A stretch of DNA of 64,000 nucleotides from Taibaiella sp. GTDB taxonomy: Bacteria; Bacteroidota; Bacteroidia; Chitinophagales; Chitinophagaceae. Each line of letters begins with the position of its first letter. Within the stretch, counting starts at the first letter, position 1. Positions 13,085 through 21,226 of this stretch are shown here, in pieces. Below the pieces are notes generated by a model. That model made no database searches. It had not been told where the DNA came from and worked only from the letters and a program-made list of their open reading frames with translations. The translations under genes were made by a program, and so were the position numbers. The stretch lies in contig JACDGL010000001.1 of NCBI GenBank assembly GCA_013815385.1, forward strand, positions 372,001-436,000. The letters are read 5' to 3'.

Positions 13085-14434
13085 CTATAGCCTGAATAAC
13101 AAAGCGAAAATTAGCCTGTCTTCTGTTTTTACCAGGTCGGGGACCCAGCTGGCGGGTAGCGGCGTTGTAGTGTAACCGGTAGGCGATGTTACACCACCCC
13201 TGCCTGCAAAGTAAGGCACGCTCGACTCGCGGTGCACATACTCTAGTCTTACCGTCAGGCTTTGGTTGGGCATCCAGTCCAGATTGGTAGAGCAGTCCCA
13301 GCCACTGAATTGGTCACCCGGATTAGCACTGTATGGATGCGTACCTGCGGTCTGTGTAGGATTATAAGGGTTTGGCAGCGGGCTTGCATCACCTGTAGGG
13401 TATAGAACCAGGTACCTGCCGGGGTTGGTCATCACTCCTCCACCTATGGTCCAGGCAAATTTATCGTGGTGGAACCACACCCTGTTATAAAACATTCCGC
13501 TTATAAAATTTTGTGCTGGGGTTGTAGAATCACTATTGAATGCCTTCACGCCCCCACCTGTTTCAAAGCCTATATCACCTGTCAGTGAAAAAGCCATTTT
13601 ACTGATGCCTTTTGCGTTAGGGTGGTTGTAGTATCTTACCAGCAGGCTATTATCCGAATGGAATCGCTTACGGTCGGGTATCCCTGCGGCATCAGTGCCT
13701 ATGTAGTCATTAGTAAGCAGCTTTATGCTCTCTTTAGGGCACCACGTTATGTTCATCCCCAGTCCCGGCATAGTATTGAATTTGCCATAACTCTGCCATC
13801 CGTTTATGACCCATGCCTCCAGTTTCAGTTTTGCTGTGGGGTACAGCTGCACCCGCAGGCCATTAAAGAACCATGGGGTATTATCAGAAGTATAGGATGC
13901 CTGGTATTCCCAGTTCTCCACCTGGTAATAGGAGTTGAGACCTATATAAGACATGAACATACCTGCATCCACATTCAATCCGTAAAGCACATCAAAGTGG
14001 TAGCCTGCATATGCTTCGCTTATATAGCGGTACACATCTGCAAGATTATACTGCCCCCTGTATATGCTATAGTCATTCCGGGGTATTACTGTAGCTCTGG
14101 TACCAAACTGGGTCATTACGCGGGCATGTGCGTTCTCATAATTAAAATCGCCTCCTATCCCTGCATAAGACAGTTCCATTTCGTTATTCCTGGCGAGTGC
14201 GGTAGATCCTACAACGGTATTATCTATCGGGTTATTGAATGAGTAGGTATAATTAGCATCTACCATTACACATCCGGTAAAGTATTTTGTCTGTAATACT
14301 GCATTGGTTCTTCTGTCGCCTCCGTTCTGCCAGGTCATATCCATCCCGTCAAAGGGGATTTTTGTTTTTACAGTGTCCTGGCCATAAACGCTTGATGCAA
14401 ATACTACGGACAAAAAGATGATTGCGCTCCTCAT
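13085..14434 (-). CDS. Outer-membrane beta-barrel porin (BBP2/OmpL-like)
   Basis: 449 residues with a signal peptide (cleavage near SVYGQ, residue 19) and a C-terminus ending in alternating hydrophobic residues and Leu (LIFALLFRL), as in outer-membrane barrels. The body consists of alternating Tyr/Trp/Gly strands and resembles the bbp2 (OmpL-like) porin family. It follows kup by 2 bp and is the last gene of the kdpD-kdpE-kup operon, so it probably admits potassium or other ions through the outer membrane under the same control. The substrate is inferred from context only. Confidence 0.8.
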   Translation of the reverse strand: MRSAIIFLSVVFASSVYGQDTVKTKIPFDGMDMTWQNGGDRRTNAVLQTKYFTGCVMVDANYTYSFNNPIDNTVVGSTALARNNEMELSYAGIGGDFNYENAHARVMTQFGTRATVIPRNDYSIYRGQYNLADVYRYISEAYAGYHFDVLYGLNVDAGMFMSYIGLNSYYQVENWEYQASYTSDNTPWFFNGLRVQLYPTAKLKLEAWVINGWQSYGKFNTMPGLGMNITWCPKESIKLLTNDYIGTDAAGIPDRKRFHSDNSLLVRYYNHPNAKGISKMAFSLTGDIGFETGGGVKAFNSDSTTPAQNFISGMFYNRVWFHHDKFAWTIGGGVMTNPGRYLVLYPTGDASPLPNPYNPTQTAGTHPYSANPGDQFSGWDCSTNLDWMPNQSLTVRLEYVHRESSVPYFAGRGGVTSPTGYTTTPLPASWVPDLVKTEDRLIFALLFRL

Positions 14435-14436
14435 GA

Positions 14437-16410
14437 TTATTGAATGTTTTGGTTTCTTGTTAGTTCTATATTTTGTATTCGTTGGTAAACCAGGGGGATG
14501 TCCTCTACAACTACATCACTCTTATCAAGGCCAAAGGCTTTCTCATCGCTTAGGCCCATATTCTTTAAGAAGAAATAAGAATTGAGCAGCAACCCGTCCC
14601 TCAGCGTAAATTCATTCTCTACAGAAAGGAATTTCTCTATCACCACAAACTTGAAGTCCGGTTCCGAATTATACTTACTCGATCCATCTGGCCTTATATG
14701 CAGGTTCAGTTCTTTGTTCTCTACCAGTTCGCGTACTATTTTCTTAAAATAGAGTTCTGTTTTCGGCTGCACCCTGAACCCCAGGTTGATATTTATTTTT
14801 ATCACCTTATCATCTGATAATTCTGATACATCATAGCTTCTCGTATAGGGTTCCTCTGTTCGGTTTATATGCACAAACCAATACACATCTGCACGCTTTG
14901 GTTTCTTGGAAAAGATAGATTTCATGACCTTTTCTTCTACCTGCCCTCTCATATTGGCCTTTGTCAGGTATATAAGATGGGTAGAGAATTTTGGTATCGT
15001 ATCATCTTCGCTCATTTCTTTCAGCAGGGTTATATACTTCCCTATCTCTACAAACTTCACGAAACGGTTATTGATCTTACGGGCGTAGTACCATACATAC
15101 ATGGTCATAAAGATGAATAGCTCAAAGAACAGGAACATCCACCGCTCTTTTATTTTAGCCGCATTGGCAACAAAAAACGACATCTCTATTACCCCGAACA
15201 CCAGCACTATACCACCAACCAGGAATTTATTCCACTTTATTTTATACAGCAGGTAATACCTCAGCAGGTAGGTGGTCATCATCATGGCAACAGTAATGGA
15301 AAATCCATATGCCGCCTCCATATGCGATGAGGTGTGGAAGTAGATGATCATAAGTATACAGCCAAACCATAGTATCATGTTTACGCTCGGTATGTATATC
15401 TGCCCTTTTATGTCTGTAGGCTGGCGCACTATTACCCGCGGCCAGAAGTTAAGGTTCATCGCCTCGCTGATCAATGTAAAAGAACCGCTGATCAATGCCT
15501 GCGATGCTATTATGGTAGCTGCGGTAGCTATCAGTATGCTTGGCAGCAGGAACCAGTGGGGCATCATATCAAAGAAAGGGTTTACATTCTGCAGGTTGGT
15601 TGTCTTCAGGTGCATTATATAAGCTGCCTGTCCCAGGTAGTTGGCTACCAGGCTTATCTTTACAAATACCCAGGTGATGCGTATATTCCTGATACCGCAA
15701 TGCCCAAGGTCCGAGTACAGCGCTTCAGCCCCCGTAGTGCAGAGAAATACAGAACCAAGGAGCCAGAATCCTTTGGGGTATCGCACTATCAAATCGTATC
15801 CGTAGTGGGGGCTAAGCGCCTTTAGTACATCAGGGTAGTGCAGTATGTGTACACCACCTATTACCAGCAGCATAGCGAACCATACGGTCATAATAGGGCC
15901 AAATGTTTTACCTATTATTTGCGAGCCAAAACGCTGGAAGAAGAATAGCGCCGATAGGATTACGATCACAATACCTACCGTCAGACCATTGCCGGGAACA
16001 ATAACATTTTCCAGTCCTTTTACGCTATTCAGTCCCTCTATGGCCGAGGCTACTGATATAGGTGGTGTTATAATGCCATCAGCAAGCAAAGTGGTCGCCC
16101 CCAGTATAGTAGGTACTACCAGGTACTTACCATATCGCCTTACCAATGCGTACAGGGAGAAAACGCCGCCTTCACCCTGGTTATCAGCCTTCAGCGTTAG
16201 CCATACATACTTGATAGTAGTCTGGAATACCAATGTCCAGAATATGCAGGAGACGCCGCCATACACCAGCACCTCATCTATCTTCCGGTCGCCGATTACA
16301 GCCCTAAGCGCATACAGCGGGCTGGTACCTATATCGCCATAGATGATACCCAATGCCACCAGCAGTGAGCCCATAGTAACCCTGCTCAAATTCTTTTGAT
16401 TTGATTTCAT
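14437..16410 (-). CDS. kup: Potassium uptake protein Kup
   Basis: 657 residues. The N-terminal half has about twelve transmembrane helices starting with LGIIYGDIGTSPLYAL, the hallmark of the KUP/HAK/KT family of proton-coupled potassium importers; GCGYGFSI-like AAYGFSITVAMMMTT is also present. The C-terminal 200 residues are soluble and cytoplasmic. Length matches the bacterial family (about 620-660). It lies 27 bp downstream of the KdpE-like regulator gene and 2 bp upstream of the porin gene. Regulation by the KdpD/KdpE-like pair is inferred from this arrangement. Confidence 0.95.
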   Translation of the reverse strand: MKSNQKNLSRVTMGSLLVALGIIYGDIGTSPLYALRAVIGDRKIDEVLVYGGVSCIFWTLVFQTTIKYVWLTLKADNQGEGGVFSLYALVRRYGKYLVVPTILGATTLLADGIITPPISVASAIEGLNSVKGLENVIVPGNGLTVGIVIVILSALFFFQRFGSQIIGKTFGPIMTVWFAMLLVIGGVHILHYPDVLKALSPHYGYDLIVRYPKGFWLLGSVFLCTTGAEALYSDLGHCGIRNIRITWVFVKISLVANYLGQAAYIMHLKTTNLQNVNPFFDMMPHWFLLPSILIATAATIIASQALISGSFTLISEAMNLNFWPRVIVRQPTDIKGQIYIPSVNMILWFGCILMIIYFHTSSHMEAAYGFSITVAMMMTTYLLRYYLLYKIKWNKFLVGGIVLVFGVIEMSFFVANAAKIKERWMFLFFELFIFMTMYVWYYARKINNRFVKFVEIGKYITLLKEMSEDDTIPKFSTHLIYLTKANMRGQVEEKVMKSIFSKKPKRADVYWFVHINRTEEPYTRSYDVSELSDDKVIKININLGFRVQPKTELYFKKIVRELVENKELNLHIRPDGSSKYNSEPDFKFVVIEKFLSVENEFTLRDGLLLNSYFFLKNMGLSDEKAFGLDKSDVVVEDIPLVYQRIQNIELTRNQNIQ

Positions 16411-16437: not shown

Positions 16438-17124
16438 TTATTCTTTGCTTACCAGGCGGTAGCCTACCCCCGATTCTGTTACCAGGTATTCGGGCCGGTT
16501 AGGGTCGTTTTCTATTTTTTTTCTCAGCTGTGCTAGGAACACTCTCAGGTATTGCGATTGGTTGATGAATCCCGGGCCCCATACCTCTTTCAATAGGTAA
16601 TGGTGGGTAAGTACTTTGCCTTCATTCCTGGCAAACAGGGATAATAGTGTGTATTCTGTGGCGGTAAGCTTTATCGTTTCCCCTTTCTTTTTCACGGTGC
16701 GTTGTGCCAGGTCTATCTGCAGGTCGCCTATAGTAATTACTACCCTTGCCTCGTCCGTTATTACACTTCTTAGTGCAGAGCGCATCCTGGCCAGCAACTC
16801 GCCTGTTCGGAAGGGTTTTATCAGGTAGTCATTGGCGCCATTGTCCAGCGCCTTTATTATATCCTCTTCGCTGCTTTGTACAGATAGGATAATGATCGGG
16901 TTGGTATACCACTCGCGCAGTTGTTTCAGTACTTCATGCCCATCTGTGTCTGGCAGTCCCAGGTCCAGTATTATCATATCAGGCGGGTGGTTGGCTGCTT
17001 GTATTATGCCCTCCTTTCCGCTACTTGCCTGGGTTACAGCATAGTCATTGCTCTGCAGCGTTATCTCCAGCAGCTTTCTTATCTGGGCTTCGTCATCTAT
17101 AATCAGTATCCCCGGCTTATTCAT
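16438..17124 (-). CDS. kdpE: KdpE-like response regulator (OmpR family)
   Basis: 228 residues. Receiver domain 1-120 with D10/D11, phosphoacceptor D54 in ILDLGLPDTDG and K103 in LIKPF; winged-helix DNA-binding domain from about 128 with LTATEYTLLSLFARNEGKVLT and a C-terminal VTESGVGYRLV. The sequence is most like KdpE, which activates potassium transporter genes. Its start overlaps the kinase gene end by 8 bp, indicating translational coupling. The inverted repeat at 18245-18364 is a candidate binding site. Confidence 0.88.
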   Translation of the reverse strand: MNKPGILIIDDEAQIRKLLEITLQSNDYAVTQASSGKEGIIQAANHPPDMIILDLGLPDTDGHEVLKQLREWYTNPIIILSVQSSEEDIIKALDNGANDYLIKPFRTGELLARMRSALRSVITDEARVVITIGDLQIDLAQRTVKKKGETIKLTATEYTLLSLFARNEGKVLTHHYLLKEVWGPGFINQSQYLRVFLAQLRKKIENDPNRPEYLVTESGVGYRLVSKE

Positions 17125-18199
17125 TTTTCAGGTTTTTTAGATAAGATGTTTCTGCCGGTATCTCAATAGTAAATTTAGCGCCGCCTGTACTGGCATTTTG
17201 CAGGTGCACAGTACCACCCAGCGCCTCTGCAAAGCCTTTTACTATAGATAGGCCCAATCCGGTACCCCCTGTTTTCGTATTCTTCAGGCGGTAAAATTTA
17301 TTGAACACCTCACCAATTTCATCCTGAGGGAATCCGGTCCCGTTATCTGCTACCATTATATTCAGTACATCCGCATGGCTCATGGCCACTATATCTATAC
17401 TGGCATTTGCGGGTGTGTACCTGCTTGCGTTTATCAGCAGGTTATAGAGTATCTGCTCCACCATACCCTTGTCTGTTTTAAAGAGCGGTATATCAGGGTT
17501 TACATTGATGGATATTTTCTGCGTAATGCGGTTTTCTTCTACACGTTTCACGGTATCGTAGATGATCTCGTTTATATCGCACCAGTCTTTCTTTGGTTGT
17601 ATAAAGCCGGCTTCTATGCGCGACATGTTCAGCAGGTTTTCTACTTGCTGGTTCAGCCGGAACGAAGCCTTTGCTATTTCCCCCACCAGTTCATTCTTAT
17701 TATGTGCGGTTAAGCCTGCATTGTTCAGTTGCAGGTTATCCGTTGCGCCTATTATAGTGGCTATGGGTGTCCTCAGCTCATGCGATAACGAATTGAGCAG
17801 CGTATTGTACAGTTTCACAGTGTTCTCTTTCTCCTCTCTTAGTGTAGCAGCCTTTTCCATTTGTCTTATCTTATAGGTAAGCACGGCATTTACCATAGCT
17901 ATCACAAAGTACATGAGCAGCAGGAACGAATCTTCGGCAGAATTTACCTGGAATGTAAAATGAGGGGGGATAAAGAAATAATCCCAGATAAGCGCCGATA
18001 ACACTGCAGCAAGCAGCACAGGGAAGATATCAAACACAACAGCAATAAGGGATACGGTAATAAGCAGTATATAAGCTACCACCCTGTACCCCGTTAGTGA
18101 GGCGAAAGCATAGCACACCGATGAAACAATGCAGATCACCAATACACTTAGCAGGTATTGGTAACCTTTTTTTACTTTCTTAATATTCAGTCTGCCCAT
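17117..18199 (-). CDS. KdpD-like sensor histidine kinase lacking the N-terminal KdpD domains
   Basis: 360 residues. Four transmembrane helices (about 14-105) of DUF4118/KdpD type, including DYFFIPPHFTFQV, lead to a short coiled coil, a HisKA domain with the phosphorylated H140 in SLSHELRTPIA, and an HATPase domain (NLLINASRYTP, DNGTGFP, GGTGLGLSIVKG). E. coli KdpD has about 890 residues, with an N-terminal KdpD/universal-stress-protein region that is absent here. Sensing must therefore rely on the membrane part. Partner is the KdpE-like regulator encoded next; target is probably kup. Confidence 0.88.
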   Translation of the reverse strand: MGRLNIKKVKKGYQYLLSVLVICIVSSVCYAFASLTGYRVVAYILLITVSLIAVVFDIFPVLLAAVLSALIWDYFFIPPHFTFQVNSAEDSFLLLMYFVIAMVNAVLTYKIRQMEKAATLREEKENTVKLYNTLLNSLSHELRTPIATIIGATDNLQLNNAGLTAHNKNELVGEIAKASFRLNQQVENLLNMSRIEAGFIQPKKDWCDINEIIYDTVKRVEENRITQKISINVNPDIPLFKTDKGMVEQILYNLLINASRYTPANASIDIVAMSHADVLNIMVADNGTGFPQDEIGEVFNKFYRLKNTKTGGTGLGLSIVKGFAEALGGTVHLQNASTGGAKFTIEIPAETSYLKNLKNE

Positions 18200-18216: not shown

Positions 18217-18224
18217 CAAAGGTA
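18217..18224 (-). promoter_or_regulatory. -7 element of the kdp-like operon
   Basis: TACCTTTG on the minus strand (TANNTTTG) ends 17 nt before the kinase ATG. No standard -33 element is found, which would fit an activator-dependent promoter. Confidence 0.5.
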
Positions 18225-18244
18225 GATGGAAGATTATAAGAAGG

Positions 18245-18364
18245 ATATAAAGGTTAAGCAAGGGCGCATAAAGATTTTATAAAGAGTAGCCCTTGCTGGC
18301 GGTAAAGCATTACATTTTTTCTGTGTTTATAAAATCTTTATGTACTGGCCATCAACCTTTATAT
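18245..18364. promoter_or_regulatory. Large symmetric inverted repeat, candidate KdpE-type operator
   Basis: Inner arms: CATAAAGATTTTATAAA (18267-18283) and its exact complement (18326-18342), 17 bp each. Outer arms: ATATAAAGGTT (18245-18255) and AACCTTTATAT (18354-18364). Both gaps between outer and inner arm are 11 nt, so the 120-bp element is symmetric about its centre. Each half contains three TTTATA-like hexamers at start spacings of 11 and 21 bp, that is, on one face of the helix. Such direct repeats suit an OmpR/KdpE-family regulator, and the element lies just upstream of the kdp-like promoter. A further pair, AGCAAGGGC (18257-18265) and GCCCTTGCT (18288-18296), permits an alternative hairpin. 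Confidence 0.6.
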
Positions 18365-18433
18365 AATGATTATATCCGCCATTGTAATTTTGTATTACCG
18401 ATCTCTCAACATAATTATCAGGGGTCTCATAGC

Positions 18434-19009
18434 ATGAAAAGGAAATTTAATTTCACGTCATTTTTATTACTCATCTCTCTATTCACTAATGCACAGGGAA
18501 GGGGCGGCATATACCTCAATGTTTCGGGCTATAAAACGCATACCTTAAGTTACGAGACACCCTGCAACCAATCAAAAAATAAAATTCGCATCCACAATAT
18601 TTTCGGCTACGGGGCGGCAGTTACTGTTATTAAAGATGGGGAGAAGCATATCCTTCGTAAAAAGGACCTCTATGGCTATGTAGATTGCAATAATGCCACT
18701 TACCGTTTCTATCTCAATACGGAGTATCGTATTGTAGATGCAGGTAACATTTATATCTATACACAGGAAGAATACGTAAGTCAGTACAAAAATTCCAGCA
18801 GGACTATCTATCATTTTTATTTTAGCACCGCGCCCGATACAGAGATACTCCCCCTCACTCTGCAAAATTTGAAGCACGCATATACCGGCAACGAAAAATT
18901 TCATGATATGCTCGACCTGTATTTCACCGATCTCAGCCTCTCCTCATACGATGAGGCTCATAAAATGTACAGGTTGAATTATCTATTCGAAAAGTATCAG
19001 AACCTATAA
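18434..19009 (+). CDS. Exported protein of unknown function, 3' end possibly frameshifted
   Basis: The start chosen is the ATG at 18434, which gives MKRKFNFTSFLLLISLFTNAQ, a signal peptide; the longer frame from 18293 would add 47 residues without sense and run through the operator. The 191-residue product is Tyr- and Asn-rich, with a DGEKHILRKKDLYGYVDC block; no family recognised. Directly after the stop, another frame reads KLNDVAVSYAERSLEKYIPNN, which looks like genuine protein, so the original gene may have been about 45 residues longer. The first gene of the AT-rich island. Confidence 0.65.
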   Translation: MKRKFNFTSFLLLISLFTNAQGRGGIYLNVSGYKTHTLSYETPCNQSKNKIRIHNIFGYGAAVTVIKDGEKHILRKKDLYGYVDCNNATYRFYLNTEYRIVDAGNIYIYTQEEYVSQYKNSSRTIYHFYFSTAPDTEILPLTLQNLKHAYTGNEKFHDMLDLYFTDLSLSSYDEAHKMYRLNYLFEKYQNL

Positions 19010-19011
19010 AT

Positions 19012-19161
19012 TATCATAAGCTGAACGATGTAGCCGTAAGCTATGCCGAACGGAGTCTTGAAAAATACATACCTAACAATTTGTTGGCATATAGTAGGTA
19101 TGTTAATTTAGTCAAGCAACAAACCGACATATGTATATCCATTTTTCCCATTTGCCATTAG
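19012..19161 (+). pseudogene. Out-of-frame continuation of the 18434 gene
   Basis: In the frame one base offset from the upstream gene, the codons from about 19012 read YHKLNDVAVSYAERSLEK and continue to a TAG at 19159-19161. The composition is protein-like up to about 19110, then runs antisense to the converging gene. One missing base near 19005-19010 would join it to the upstream frame. Either a real frameshift or a base-call error in an AT-rich run. Confidence 0.4.
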
Positions 19162-19738
19162 TTTTTCTATAAACAGCTAATTCACCATTACCACAATCCA
19201 AACCGCATAGCCGCTTTATAAATATTACAGCAAGCGAATTATTCCGAATATATATTGGATTAGAGAACATAAAAATCCAATTTTTTCTACTTATTTCTTT
19301 AATACTAGCCAACCTAAATTCCCGAGAATATTCAGGTGTATCTATTAATCGATAAAGTTTTATGTTTAATTTTTGTTTGATTTTATAATATTGAATCACA
19401 CTATCTGCACTAATCATTTTTGAGTCATTGAATAGCGCATCAGACCAAATTGGCTTGGTGCAAAGTTTCAACTGTTGTAAAATGTAGTGTTTTTCACTTT
19501 TTGTAAATTGGAAAGCAATTTTTTTATTTGACCCTGTTCTTTGGTAAAGCTTTTCATTATAAGTTTCCTTTACAACTAAATAAACTTCAGTTATCCTATC
19601 TGTATAAACTATTTTTTCACTTCCTACATATTTTAATATCTCAGGCTGAATAAATTCAAATGGATTAGTCTCTTGGCAATAGGTTTTGCTTGTAAGGATT
19701 AGAAAACAAGCCGCTATAATACATTTTAATCTATACAT
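19112..19738 (-). CDS. Exported protein of unknown function
   Basis: Start taken at the third in-frame ATG (19738), which gives MYRLKCIIAACFLILTSKTYCQ, a good signal peptide; the longest frame begins at 19756. About 208 residues. The body alternates Lys, Tyr and Ile strands and ends in GNGELAVYRKTNGKWEKW, a pattern of small exported beta-sheet proteins. No family recognised. AT content is much higher than in the flanking housekeeping genes, so it may have been acquired. Convergent with the frameshifted tail of the upstream gene. Confidence 0.6.
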   Translation of the reverse strand: MYRLKCIIAACFLILTSKTYCQETNPFEFIQPEILKYVGSEKIVYTDRITEVYLVVKETYNEKLYQRTGSNKKIAFQFTKSEKHYILQQLKLCTKPIWSDALFNDSKMISADSVIQYYKIKQKLNIKLYRLIDTPEYSREFRLASIKEISRKNWIFMFSNPIYIRNNSLAVIFIKRLCGLDCGNGELAVYRKTNGKWEKWIYICRFVA

Positions 19739-19784
19739 AGTAGAACTAATATACATTTCGTTGTTATTCTCTTTTTAGAAGACA

Positions 19785-20227
19785 TTAATAATATAGATGT
19801 ACATTATGTGCAAAGACAATATTCCAATAACAAGTTGAGATTTCCTTTCTATAATATAAATCAGCCGCCGCATACCTAATGTCAAAAGGAAATTCTACAT
19901 GACTGTGATCTTTAACCATCTCTATTCTTACTACATAAAAAAATTTTATTATTAATTTTTGTTAGTAATATCTTATGGTACTTTTGTTTAATGTTTCCGG
20001 CAAACTGCAAACGATTATTGACATAAATTCTAACACTGTCATTAAATTTTTCAAATAAATATAAATACCCACTATCAATATGTTTGCTAGTTATATATCC
20101 AGCCGTTTTTAACTCAGAATAATCTAATGTAATGTTATTATCTATACTGTCAATATCGCTTTGCCATAAATAGTAAATATATTAATAAAATAAAATAACA
20201 TATTAACAGGATGACAATACATTTCAT
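19785..20227 (-). pseudogene. Decayed small exported or membrane-anchored protein gene with two frame shifts
   Basis: Translation from the ATG at 20227 gives a hydrophobic leader (MKCIVILLICYFILLIYLL) that soon stops. One base further the frame reads WQSDIDSIDNNITLDYSEL and continues for about 65 codons to NNKIFLC, where a run of seven T bases shifts the frame again; a third frame then reads FYVVRIEMVKDHSHVEF through LYYRKEIS to a TAA at 19785. Together they make one protein of about 147 residues with an N-terminal anchor or signal. Two indels in homopolymer-like AT runs could be decay or sequencing error. Family unknown. Confidence 0.65.
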
Positions 20228-20312
20228 ATTGTTATTGCATTTGTGTGGTTGAAATGGTAAACTGTTGATATAATCACGGTTATTTGTTCTGTAAAACTAC
20301 CATCGAATAAAA

Positions 20313-20618
20313 TTATTTTAATTTAAATATAATTTTTAATATGGAATATAAAATAGGCCATAATATAAGCCATGATAAAAAACAAGCAATAAGTTGTACA
20401 AAAAAAGCTGAAAACATACTATTATTAACCAACCTAACAAAGCCAAAAATAACGCTAGAGATTGTAAAAAAGTGATAATCCTCGAACCTATATTTATCGT
20501 CAATCGTTGCGCTGTTAAAAACAATAATGTATTGTACTACAGGAAAAAAATAGTAAATAACACAAAATATGGCTGCAAACAACTTGCTTTTTTTTCTCAT
20601 TTTATACTTGTTCAGCAT
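20313..20618 (-). CDS. Small membrane protein of unknown function
   Basis: 101 residues (95 if the second ATG, giving MRKKSK, is used) with three or four hydrophobic segments and a Lys-rich start and end. The ATG at 20618 overlaps the TGA of a short upstream frame as ATGCTGA, an arrangement that suggests translational coupling and favours the longer start. Part of the AT-rich island; no family recognised. Confidence 0.5.
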   Translation of the reverse strand: MLNKYKMRKKSKLFAAIFCVIYYFFPVVQYIIVFNSATIDDKYRFEDYHFFTISSVIFGFVRLVNNSMFSAFFVQLIACFLSWLILWPILYSILKIIFKLK

Positions 20619-20728
20619 AGCTTGTAGTTACCGTAATTTTTATCTGCCAATTTTTCTCTGTTATAAAGATACTCTTCTTCTTTTCCCCAATAACTAGAAC
20701 AGGATTCCAATTGAATATAATCCAGCAT
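20612..20728 (-). CDS. Short frame, possible remnant of a gene end
   Basis: 38 codons from an ATG at 20728 read MLDYIQLESCSSYWGKEEEY and end KNYGNYKLC at a TGA that overlaps the next gene's ATG. Composition (Tyr, Glu, Lys, Asn) looks like real protein. A second frame of 49 codons is also open here, so the assignment is uncertain. It may be the 3' end of a gene whose front has been lost. Confidence 0.3.
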   Translation of the reverse strand: MLDYIQLESCSSYWGKEEEYLYNREKLADKNYGNYKLC

Positions 20729-20748
20729 TTGATATTACTAATCATCAC

Positions 20749-20845
20749 CTATTCAATGTGGATATGTTTATTTGGTTTCACTATCCCCGCAATAGTATAT
20801 TGCAGTAACCAAGCTCTTTGAAATCTAGACCATCGCTAATGACAC
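20749..20845 (-). pseudogene. Gene remnant (C-terminal fragment)
   Basis: The minus strand reads VISDGLDFKELGY in one frame and, after a shift of frame, TIAGIVKPNKHIHIE followed by TAG at 20751-20749. The two pieces read naturally as one C-terminus interrupted by a small insertion; GCAATA and TATTGC flank the break as a small palindrome. I cannot name the family. It supports the view that this island holds gene debris. Confidence 0.35.
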
Positions 20846-20882
20846 AATCAGCTAATCAGCTAATTAGCCAATCAGCTAATCA
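20846..20882. repeat. 8-bp tandem repeat, about 4.6 copies
   Basis: AATCAGCT is repeated at 20846, 20854, 20862 (as AATTAGCC), 20870 and partially at 20878. Three full copies are identical and one has two changes. It lies in gene-poor DNA at the edge of the AT-rich island. Confidence 0.85.
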
Positions 20883-21226
20883 AAAAAACTTACCTTTTAT
20901 GCACCCTGATGGAAGTAAAATGCACCTAAAATGGAAGTAGATCGGCACAGAATTAACCTTTTTCGGCACTAAATTACCATATTTTAAAAACTAATAACAG
21001 CCCCAGAAAAGAGATACAGAAGATGCTATCCACAAAAAGGTAAAGATTCACGCTGTTATTTACCTTTTACCCCCTTCCCACTCAGTTTTTTAACCTGAAT
21101 GCTATACTCTTACTTATCAATTTCTATATATGAAAGCCGCCAAATCTATCTTCCTGTTTGTCTCCAATAGCTTTGCAAAGAACAAGTGCCATGGTTGCAT
21201 TTATTTTATTATCCTCTCTAATCTGC
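20883..21226. other. Gene-free region upstream of the CNNM-type transporter gene
   Basis: About 340 bp with no credible reading frame. It marks the return from the AT-rich island to normal composition. Apart from the repeat before it and the -7 element after it, I see nothing recognisable. Confidence 0.5.

What the first reader, a model, noticed from the sequence alone, without database searches (positions are those of the whole stretch)
18245..18364. 120-bp symmetric operator-like element before a Kdp-type potassium operon
Perfect 17-bp inner arms and 11-bp outer arms are separated by equal 11-nt gaps. Each half carries TTTATA, TTTATG and TTTATA at start spacings of 11 and 21 bp, one helical face. 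The E. coli KdpE target is a T-rich direct repeat of similar type (recalled, approximate). The element ends about 20 bp upstream of the operon's TANNTTTG box. It could be a double KdpE site controlling both the operon and the divergent secreted protein gene.
Basis: partly seen in the sequence, partly recalled or inferred. Interest (0 to 1): 0.65.

Follow-up and report, generated by a model that had tools for sequence, protein, structure and literature searches.

The report
Mirrored potassium-response switch between two genes
A stretch of DNA between two back-to-back genes carries two mirror-image copies of a well-conserved binding pattern for a potassium-sensing regulator, so low potassium probably turns on both a potassium-uptake operon and a neighbouring secreted protein whose closest relatives often sit beside potassium pump genes.

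Summary
The element is a mirror pair of complete promoter-operator modules: a 17-bp site TTTATAAAATCTTTATG, 15 nt, a weaker 17-bp site, 10 nt, then a TANNTTTG box. Both sites have the layout of the E. coli KdpE site (TTTATA-N5-TTTACA). The neighbouring regulator is KdpE-like and keeps three DNA-contact residues. The operon is kdpD-type kinase, kdpE, kup and BBP2 porin, not kdpFABC; no KdpA was found in the genome. The site lies upstream of kdpD in 44 of 54 regions from the family (at most 2 mismatches; reversed-pattern control 1 of 54). Elsewhere in Bacteroidota it also precedes separate kup, TrkH and permease genes beside kdpDE. The exact 17-mer+42 nt+box module occurs 17 times in 294 family genomes (control 0): 16 at kdpD, and once here on the other strand, before the secreted-protein gene. 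That protein's homologues adjoin kdpA in 7 of 29 fetched loci. None of the other operator copies scanned has such a mirror. Most likely phosphorylated KdpE activates both promoters at low K+. Binding and induction are untested. Known kind of operator; new arrangement and a new candidate regulon member.

The parts
18267..18283 (-). distal KdpE-type site of the kdpD promoter, TTTATA-AAATC-TTTATG
   Evidence: present upstream of kdpD in 44 of 54 family regions with <=2 mismatches
18235..18251 (-). proximal, weaker KdpE-type site TTTATA-TCCTT-CTTATA
   Evidence: same place in the 36 distinct 42-gap modules aligned; in L252 this second site is itself an exact 17-mer
18217..18224 (-). TACCTTTG, sigma-A -7 box of the kdpD-kdpE-kup-porin operon
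   Evidence: consensus from PMC9723704 passages
18326..18342 (+). distal KdpE-type site of the divergent promoter (mirror copy), TTTATA-AAATC-TTTATG
18358..18374 (+). proximal, weaker KdpE-type site TTTATA-TAATG-ATTATA
   Evidence: the module without its 17-mer scores rank 2 of 127,868 window positions
18385..18392 (+). TAATTTTG, -7 box of the divergent gene
18284..18325 (.). 42-nt unique centre between the two distal sites
17117..18199 (-). KdpD-type sensor kinase (DUF4118, HisKA, HATPase_c), without the N-terminal KdpD domain
16438..17124 (-). KdpE-type response regulator; best PDB match E. coli KdpE 4kny; R194, R201, T216 align with contact residues R193, R200, T215
14437..16410 (-). Kup-type potassium transporter
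13085..14434 (-). BBP2 (OmpL-like) putative outer-membrane porin
18434..19009 (+). divergent secreted protein, no Pfam family; homologues adjoin kdpA in 7 of 29 non-own homologue loci fetched

Best explanation
The element is two mirror-image KdpE-type promoter-operators sharing one 234-bp intergenic region. Under potassium limitation the KdpD-type kinase phosphorylates the KdpE-type regulator (inferred). KdpE dimers bind the strong distal site (predicted -71 to -55) and then the weaker proximal site (-39 to -23), 32 bp or about three helical turns closer to the promoter. The proximal site overlaps the -33 region, and bound KdpE recruits RNA polymerase to the TANNTTTG box (inferred). This happens in both directions, so the kdpD-kdpE-kup-porin operon (autoregulated) and the divergent secreted-protein gene are induced together. 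Shown by sequence: the sites, their spacing, their conservation before K+ transport genes, the regulator's identity, and the kdp linkage of the secreted protein's closest relatives. Inferred: binding, activation and the K+ signal.
For: Half-sites TTTATA-N5-TTTATG match E. coli TTTATA-N5-TTTACA. The E. coli footprint lies at -72 to -50 (PMC3264566 passage); the distal site here is predicted at -71 to -55 from the -7 box. E. coli KdpE is the top PDB match, contact residues kept. Conservation: 44 of 54 kdpD upstream regions, controls 1, 0 and 0. All 37 exact copies, in 34 of 54 family loci, sit 40-92 bp before kdpD, kup or bbp2 on the right strand. The site also precedes a TrkH gene in 4 and a permease gene in 3 of 80 named loci. 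Exact module: 17 places, control 0; 15 of 15 outside the window are kdpD promoters. The + module is the second-best of 127,868 window positions with a matrix built without the window. Secreted-protein homologues adjoin kdpA in 7 of 29 loci; in G078 the order is operator-kdpD-kdpE-sec-kdpA-kdpB-kdpC.
Against: No binding, expression or transcription-start data. The mirror copy was found only here and the genus holds one genome, so the + module has no comparative support of its own. No site-like pair (TTTATR-N5-TTTAYR) was found in the 250 bp before any non-own secreted-protein homologue tested; 5 of the 7 kdpA-linked ones have an NtrC-type regulator nearby instead. The + proximal site is weaker (ATTATA) and its box TAATTTTG is found in 4 of 36 modules against 18 for TACCTTTG. 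10 of 54 family kdpD regions lack the site at 2 mismatches, and 20 of 68 named ones.
Confidence: 0.78

Rival explanations
1. Only the operon side works. The + copy is a relic of a duplication-inversion or an upstream auxiliary pair of sites that boosts the kdpD promoter, and the secreted-protein gene is not potassium-regulated.
For: Mirror copy seen only in the window among 95 exact copies scanned, duplicates and the window pair included; the + module scores lower (55.6 against 65.9 bits); homologues of the secreted protein elsewhere lack the site.
Against: The + side keeps the whole module, including the proximal site and a TANNTTTG box at exactly 42 nt, with mostly unlike spacers. Leaving out the 17-mer it still ranks second in the window. 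The protein's closest relatives are kdp-linked.
Confidence: 0.15
2. The perfect palindrome acts as one unit: KdpE bound at both distal sites brings them together or bends the DNA (or the DNA extrudes), so the two promoters are coupled rather than independent.
For: The distal sites are perfect mirror copies separated by 42 nt; the single strand folds well (z -4.16).
Against: Unmirrored modules stand at the other kdpD promoters with an exact copy, so symmetry is not needed for conservation of the site; the 42-nt centre is not symmetric.
Confidence: 0.1
3. Another OmpR/PhoB-family regulator, not the adjacent KdpE, binds the sites.
For: Four other matches over nearly the whole regulator, at 28-35% identity, are in the genome.
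Against: The site follows kdpDE from genome to genome and marks K+ transport genes; the adjacent regulator has the KdpE contact residues.
Confidence: 0.05
4. A hairpin, terminator or mobile-element end.
For: Long inverted repeat with a strong single-strand fold.
Against: It lies between two divergent starts; only two exact copies in the genome and none with one mismatch; elsewhere it is kept as a direct-repeat site without the inverted partner.
Confidence: 0.02

Closest known systems
E. coli kdpFABC operator bound by KdpE (PMC3264566, abstract and passages seen; sequence read from NC_000913.3)
   Same: Two T-rich 6-bp direct-repeat half-sites with 5 bp between, TTTATA-N5-TTTACA; location -72 to -50; read by an OmpR-type KdpE with conserved contact residues.
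   Different: E. coli has one such site before kdpFABC; here two tandem sites per promoter, in mirror pairs, before kdpDE-kup-porin and a secreted-protein gene. In E. coli Kup is described as constitutive (PMC5401905 passage).
KdpDE two-component system
   Same: HisKA/HATPase kinase with DUF4118 membrane domain plus KdpE-type regulator, next to a K+ transporter.
   Different: The N-terminal KdpD domain, which in E. coli phosphorylates KdpB (PMC11018627 passages), is absent from the kinase and was not found in the genome; no KdpA found.
Bacteroidota sigma-A promoter (TANNTTTG at -12 to -5; PMC9723704 passages)
   Same: Both sides end in a TANNTTTG box.
   Different: The -33 region is occupied by the proximal KdpE-type site, suggesting an activator-dependent promoter (inference; the -33 element is recalled).

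Membership tests
KdpE operator | two TTTATA/TTTACA-like half-sites with a 5-bp spacer | tested here: met
KdpE operator | lies before a K+ uptake operon | tested here: met
   Kup is the third gene of the - strand operon
KdpE operator | placed about -72 to -50 from the transcription start | tested here: inconclusive
   agrees if the -7 box is at -12 to -5; start site not measured
KdpE operator | conserved before orthologous operons | tested here: met
   44 of 54 family regions (reversed control 1); 48 of 68 named regions (reversed control 2), partly the same genomes
KdpE operator | bound by KdpE | not testable with these tools
   only conservation of contact residues could be checked
KdpDE system | KdpE-type OmpR regulator | tested here: met
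KdpDE system | kinase with HisKA, HATPase and DUF4118 | tested here: met
KdpDE system | N-terminal KdpD domain PF02702 | tested here: not met
   a kinase-only version, so 'KdpD-type' rather than full KdpD
kdpFABC operon | kdpA present | tested here: not met
Kup/HAK/KT transporter | K_trans domain over cut-off | tested here: met

The most novel reading that the evidence does not exclude
The secreted protein is a previously unrecognised exported partner of bacterial potassium uptake. Its family is linked by neighbourhood to KdpABC and the BBP2 porin, and here it is wired to KdpE through an added mirror promoter in a genome where the pump itself was not found. It may help potassium reach the inner-membrane transporter through the outer membrane or periplasm.
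Probability: 0.3. Interest if true: 0.7.

Novelty: new variant of a known kind. Interest (0 to 1): 0.5.

Why it matters
In Bacteroidota the KdpDE switch seems to have kept its DNA site while the transporter behind it changed (Kup, TrkH, a permease, and in some genomes kdpABC). That gives a simple sequence handle (TTTATAAAATCTTTAYR) on potassium regulons across a phylum where my searches listed no description of them. The mirrored copy points to a secreted protein family and a porin as candidate new parts of potassium acquisition, which can be tested directly.

Tried and rejected
Looser half-site pattern TTTATR-N5-TTTATR in the own genome: 14 matches against 15 for the reversed control, so the half-sites alone are not specific. 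The 17-mer with up to 2 mismatches in the own genome: 21 matches against 13 for the reversed control, namely the two exact copies, none with 1 mismatch and 19 with 2. The second Kup gene, on contig C20, has no copy in that list. None of the 16 two-mismatch loci newly fetched (L109-L124; 3 of the 19 were not looked at) showed homologues of the five proteins of this locus.

Exact 17-mer over 294 family genomes: 55 places in 50 genomes, reversed control 27 by my own sum of the table. 40 of the 55 are at kdpD, kup or bbp2 of kdpDE loci, or are the window pair. For the other 15 no K+ gene was found: 11 by tblastn of fetched regions (one 24% kinase match in L184), 4 by a downstream-ORF check only (one of these, in G094, lies at a contig end and cannot be judged). 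I take these as chance.

Structure of the secreted protein: AlphaFold2 with two sequences gave mean pLDDT 42.8, so no fold search was made. A sigma-54-like promoter was sought in about 220 nt before 11 secreted-protein homologues and not seen; promoters further upstream were not examined. Terminator or hairpin reading rejected.

Full report
WHAT IS THERE. The inverted repeat is exact: inner arms 18267-18283/18326-18342, outer arms 18245-18255/18354-18364 with 11-nt gaps. It occurs once in the window and in none of 100 shuffles. Read outward, each half is TTTATAAAATCTTTATG, 15 nt, a second TTTATA-N5-NTTATA, 10 nt, then a TANNTTTG box: TACCTTTG at 18217-18224 on -, TAATTTTG at 18385-18392 on +. 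The sequences between and outside the sites are mostly unlike, so the similarity is largely confined to the sites.

SURROUNDINGS. On the - strand follow a kinase with DUF4118, HisKA and HATPase_c, an OmpR-type regulator, a Kup transporter and a BBP2 porin. On the + strand is a 191-aa protein with a signal-peptide-like start (my reading) and no Pfam family. The genome (3.25 Mb in 39 contigs, listed as 100% complete) gave no match to KdpA, the N-terminal KdpD domain or TrkH, and two Kup genes.

THE REGULATOR. The best PDB match of the regulator is E. coli KdpE (4kny, E 9.5e-62). In the printed alignment R194, R201 and T216 (numbering checked) line up, by my count along that alignment, with R193, R200 and T215, which PMC3264566 reports as important for DNA binding (abstract). 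That paper gives the half-sites as TTTATA and TTTACA with 5 bp between and cites a footprint at -72 to -50 (passages); I read the site itself in NC_000913.3. If the -7 box is at -12 to -5 (PMC9723704 passages), the distal site here is at -71 to -55 and the proximal one at -39 to -23.

CONSERVATION. Kinase homologues at E <= 1e-60 were found in 56 of 294 family genomes, this one included. I fetched regions from 54 of the other 55; the remaining one, G196, came later as L202 and its kinase gene is cut at a contig end. In one search, 54 kdpD upstream regions were tested (L076 gives two; L108 was dropped because its match starts late in the protein): 44 have the 17-mer with at most 2 mismatches, 29 of them exact, against 1 of 54 for the reversed pattern, 0 of 54 for the opposite strand and 0 of 55 upstream of kdpE. 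All 37 exact copies, in 34 of the 54 loci, lie 40-92 bp before kdpD (30), kup (6) or bbp2 (1) on the right strand. Among the 30 at kdpD the distance to TANNTTTG is 42 nt in 15, 41 in 4, 35-36 in 4, 9-10 in 5 and no box was found in 2. In the 9-10 nt form the site stands where the proximal site stands here. In L252 both sites are exact 17-mers 32 bp apart, which supports the tandem layout.

TRANSPORTER SWAPS. Of the 54 family loci 47 hold kup and 6 hold kdpA, 3 of them both. Among 80 named loci, which partly repeat these genomes, the exact site also precedes a TrkH gene in 4 and an amino-acid-permease-family gene in 3; Pfam was run on one of each, the others rest on tblastn. That the permease is a KimA-like K+ importer is recalled, not tested. 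Not all kdpDE loci carry the site: 27 of the 80 named loci have no exact copy in the stretch held, among them 9 with kdpA, from records titled Bacteroidales, Bacteroidia, Paludibacter or Draconibacterium.

THE DIVERGENT SIDE. A matrix from 36 distinct 42-gap modules, none from the window, gives 65.9 bits for - and 55.6 for +, next best -9.1. Without the 17-mer columns the + side is still second of 127,868 positions (27.8; highest in 30 Markov windows 20.3). The modules were chosen for a box at 42 nt, so the matrix favours that distance. The exact pattern 17-mer + N42 + TANNTTTG is found 17 times in 16 of 294 genomes, reversed control 0; outside the window all 15 are kdpD promoters. Of 95 exact 17-mer copies scanned (duplicates and the window pair included) only the window's two have an exact mirror copy within 300 bp upstream; the next best scored 12.0 of a possible 29.4 bits.

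THE SECRETED PROTEIN. Homologues occur in 46 of 294 genomes including this one. Of the 29 non-own homologue loci fetched with 1.5-kb flanks (the best match of each of 29 of the 45 other genomes), 7 have kdpA directly beside it, all 7 among the nine best homologues; 5 have BBP2 and an NtrC-type regulator; one has the regulator only; 16 show none of these three within the flanks. In G078 the order is operator, kdpD, kdpE, secreted protein, kdpA, kdpB, kdpC. In 5 of the other 6 kdpA loci an NtrC-type regulator precedes it. No site-like half-site pair was found in the 250 bp before any non-own homologue tested. The link to Kdp thus rests on neighbourhood; control by this operator is seen directly only here, and through the operon promoter in G078.

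LITERATURE. Searches combining KdpDE, KdpD or KdpE (or kdpABC) with Kup, Bacteroidetes/Bacteroidota, Flavobacterium, Chitinophagaceae, KimA or RegPrecise (the lists of 40, 53 and 64 were capped) listed no paper whose title or abstract start describes a KdpE site before kup in Bacteroidota. The library is open-access only. Passages of PMC10634447 (Chryseobacterium) concern a Kdp transporter and do not mention Kup. [quoted passage not shown]

VERDICT. A KdpE-type operator, very likely functional on the operon side, probably on both sides. Known kind; the mirror arrangement, the Kup operon behind it and the secreted protein are the new parts.

Noticed in passing
window 19000-21000: A low-G+C stretch (0.25-0.32, against 0.37-0.47 on either side) after the secreted-protein gene, with two ORFs of 80 aa or more (19112-19756 and 20313-20618, both -); looks like a foreign insertion.
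   Followed up: no
L194, L195, L196, L198, L199: Kdp loci with an NtrC-type sigma-54 activator, the secreted protein, kdpA, kdpB and kdpC (L195 is cut by the contig end; a BBP2 gene follows in L194 and L196); suggests a second way of controlling Kdp in this family.
   Followed up: partly
L193, L194, L195, L196, L203, just upstream of the secreted-protein homologue: A tiny ORF ending ...IDWFEKI stop, perhaps a KdpF-like peptide (read by eye).
   Followed up: no
L076 (G027): Two kdpD-kdpE pairs one after the other with two kup genes, one divergent and one downstream.
   Followed up: no
L252:5888-5936: Two exact 17-mers in tandem 32 bp apart before kdpD; the proximal site can be as strong as the distal one.
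   Followed up: yes
L068, L070, L071, L073, L074, L077, L080, L096: Only one exact site lies between divergent kdpD and kup; whether it serves both directions is open.
   Followed up: no
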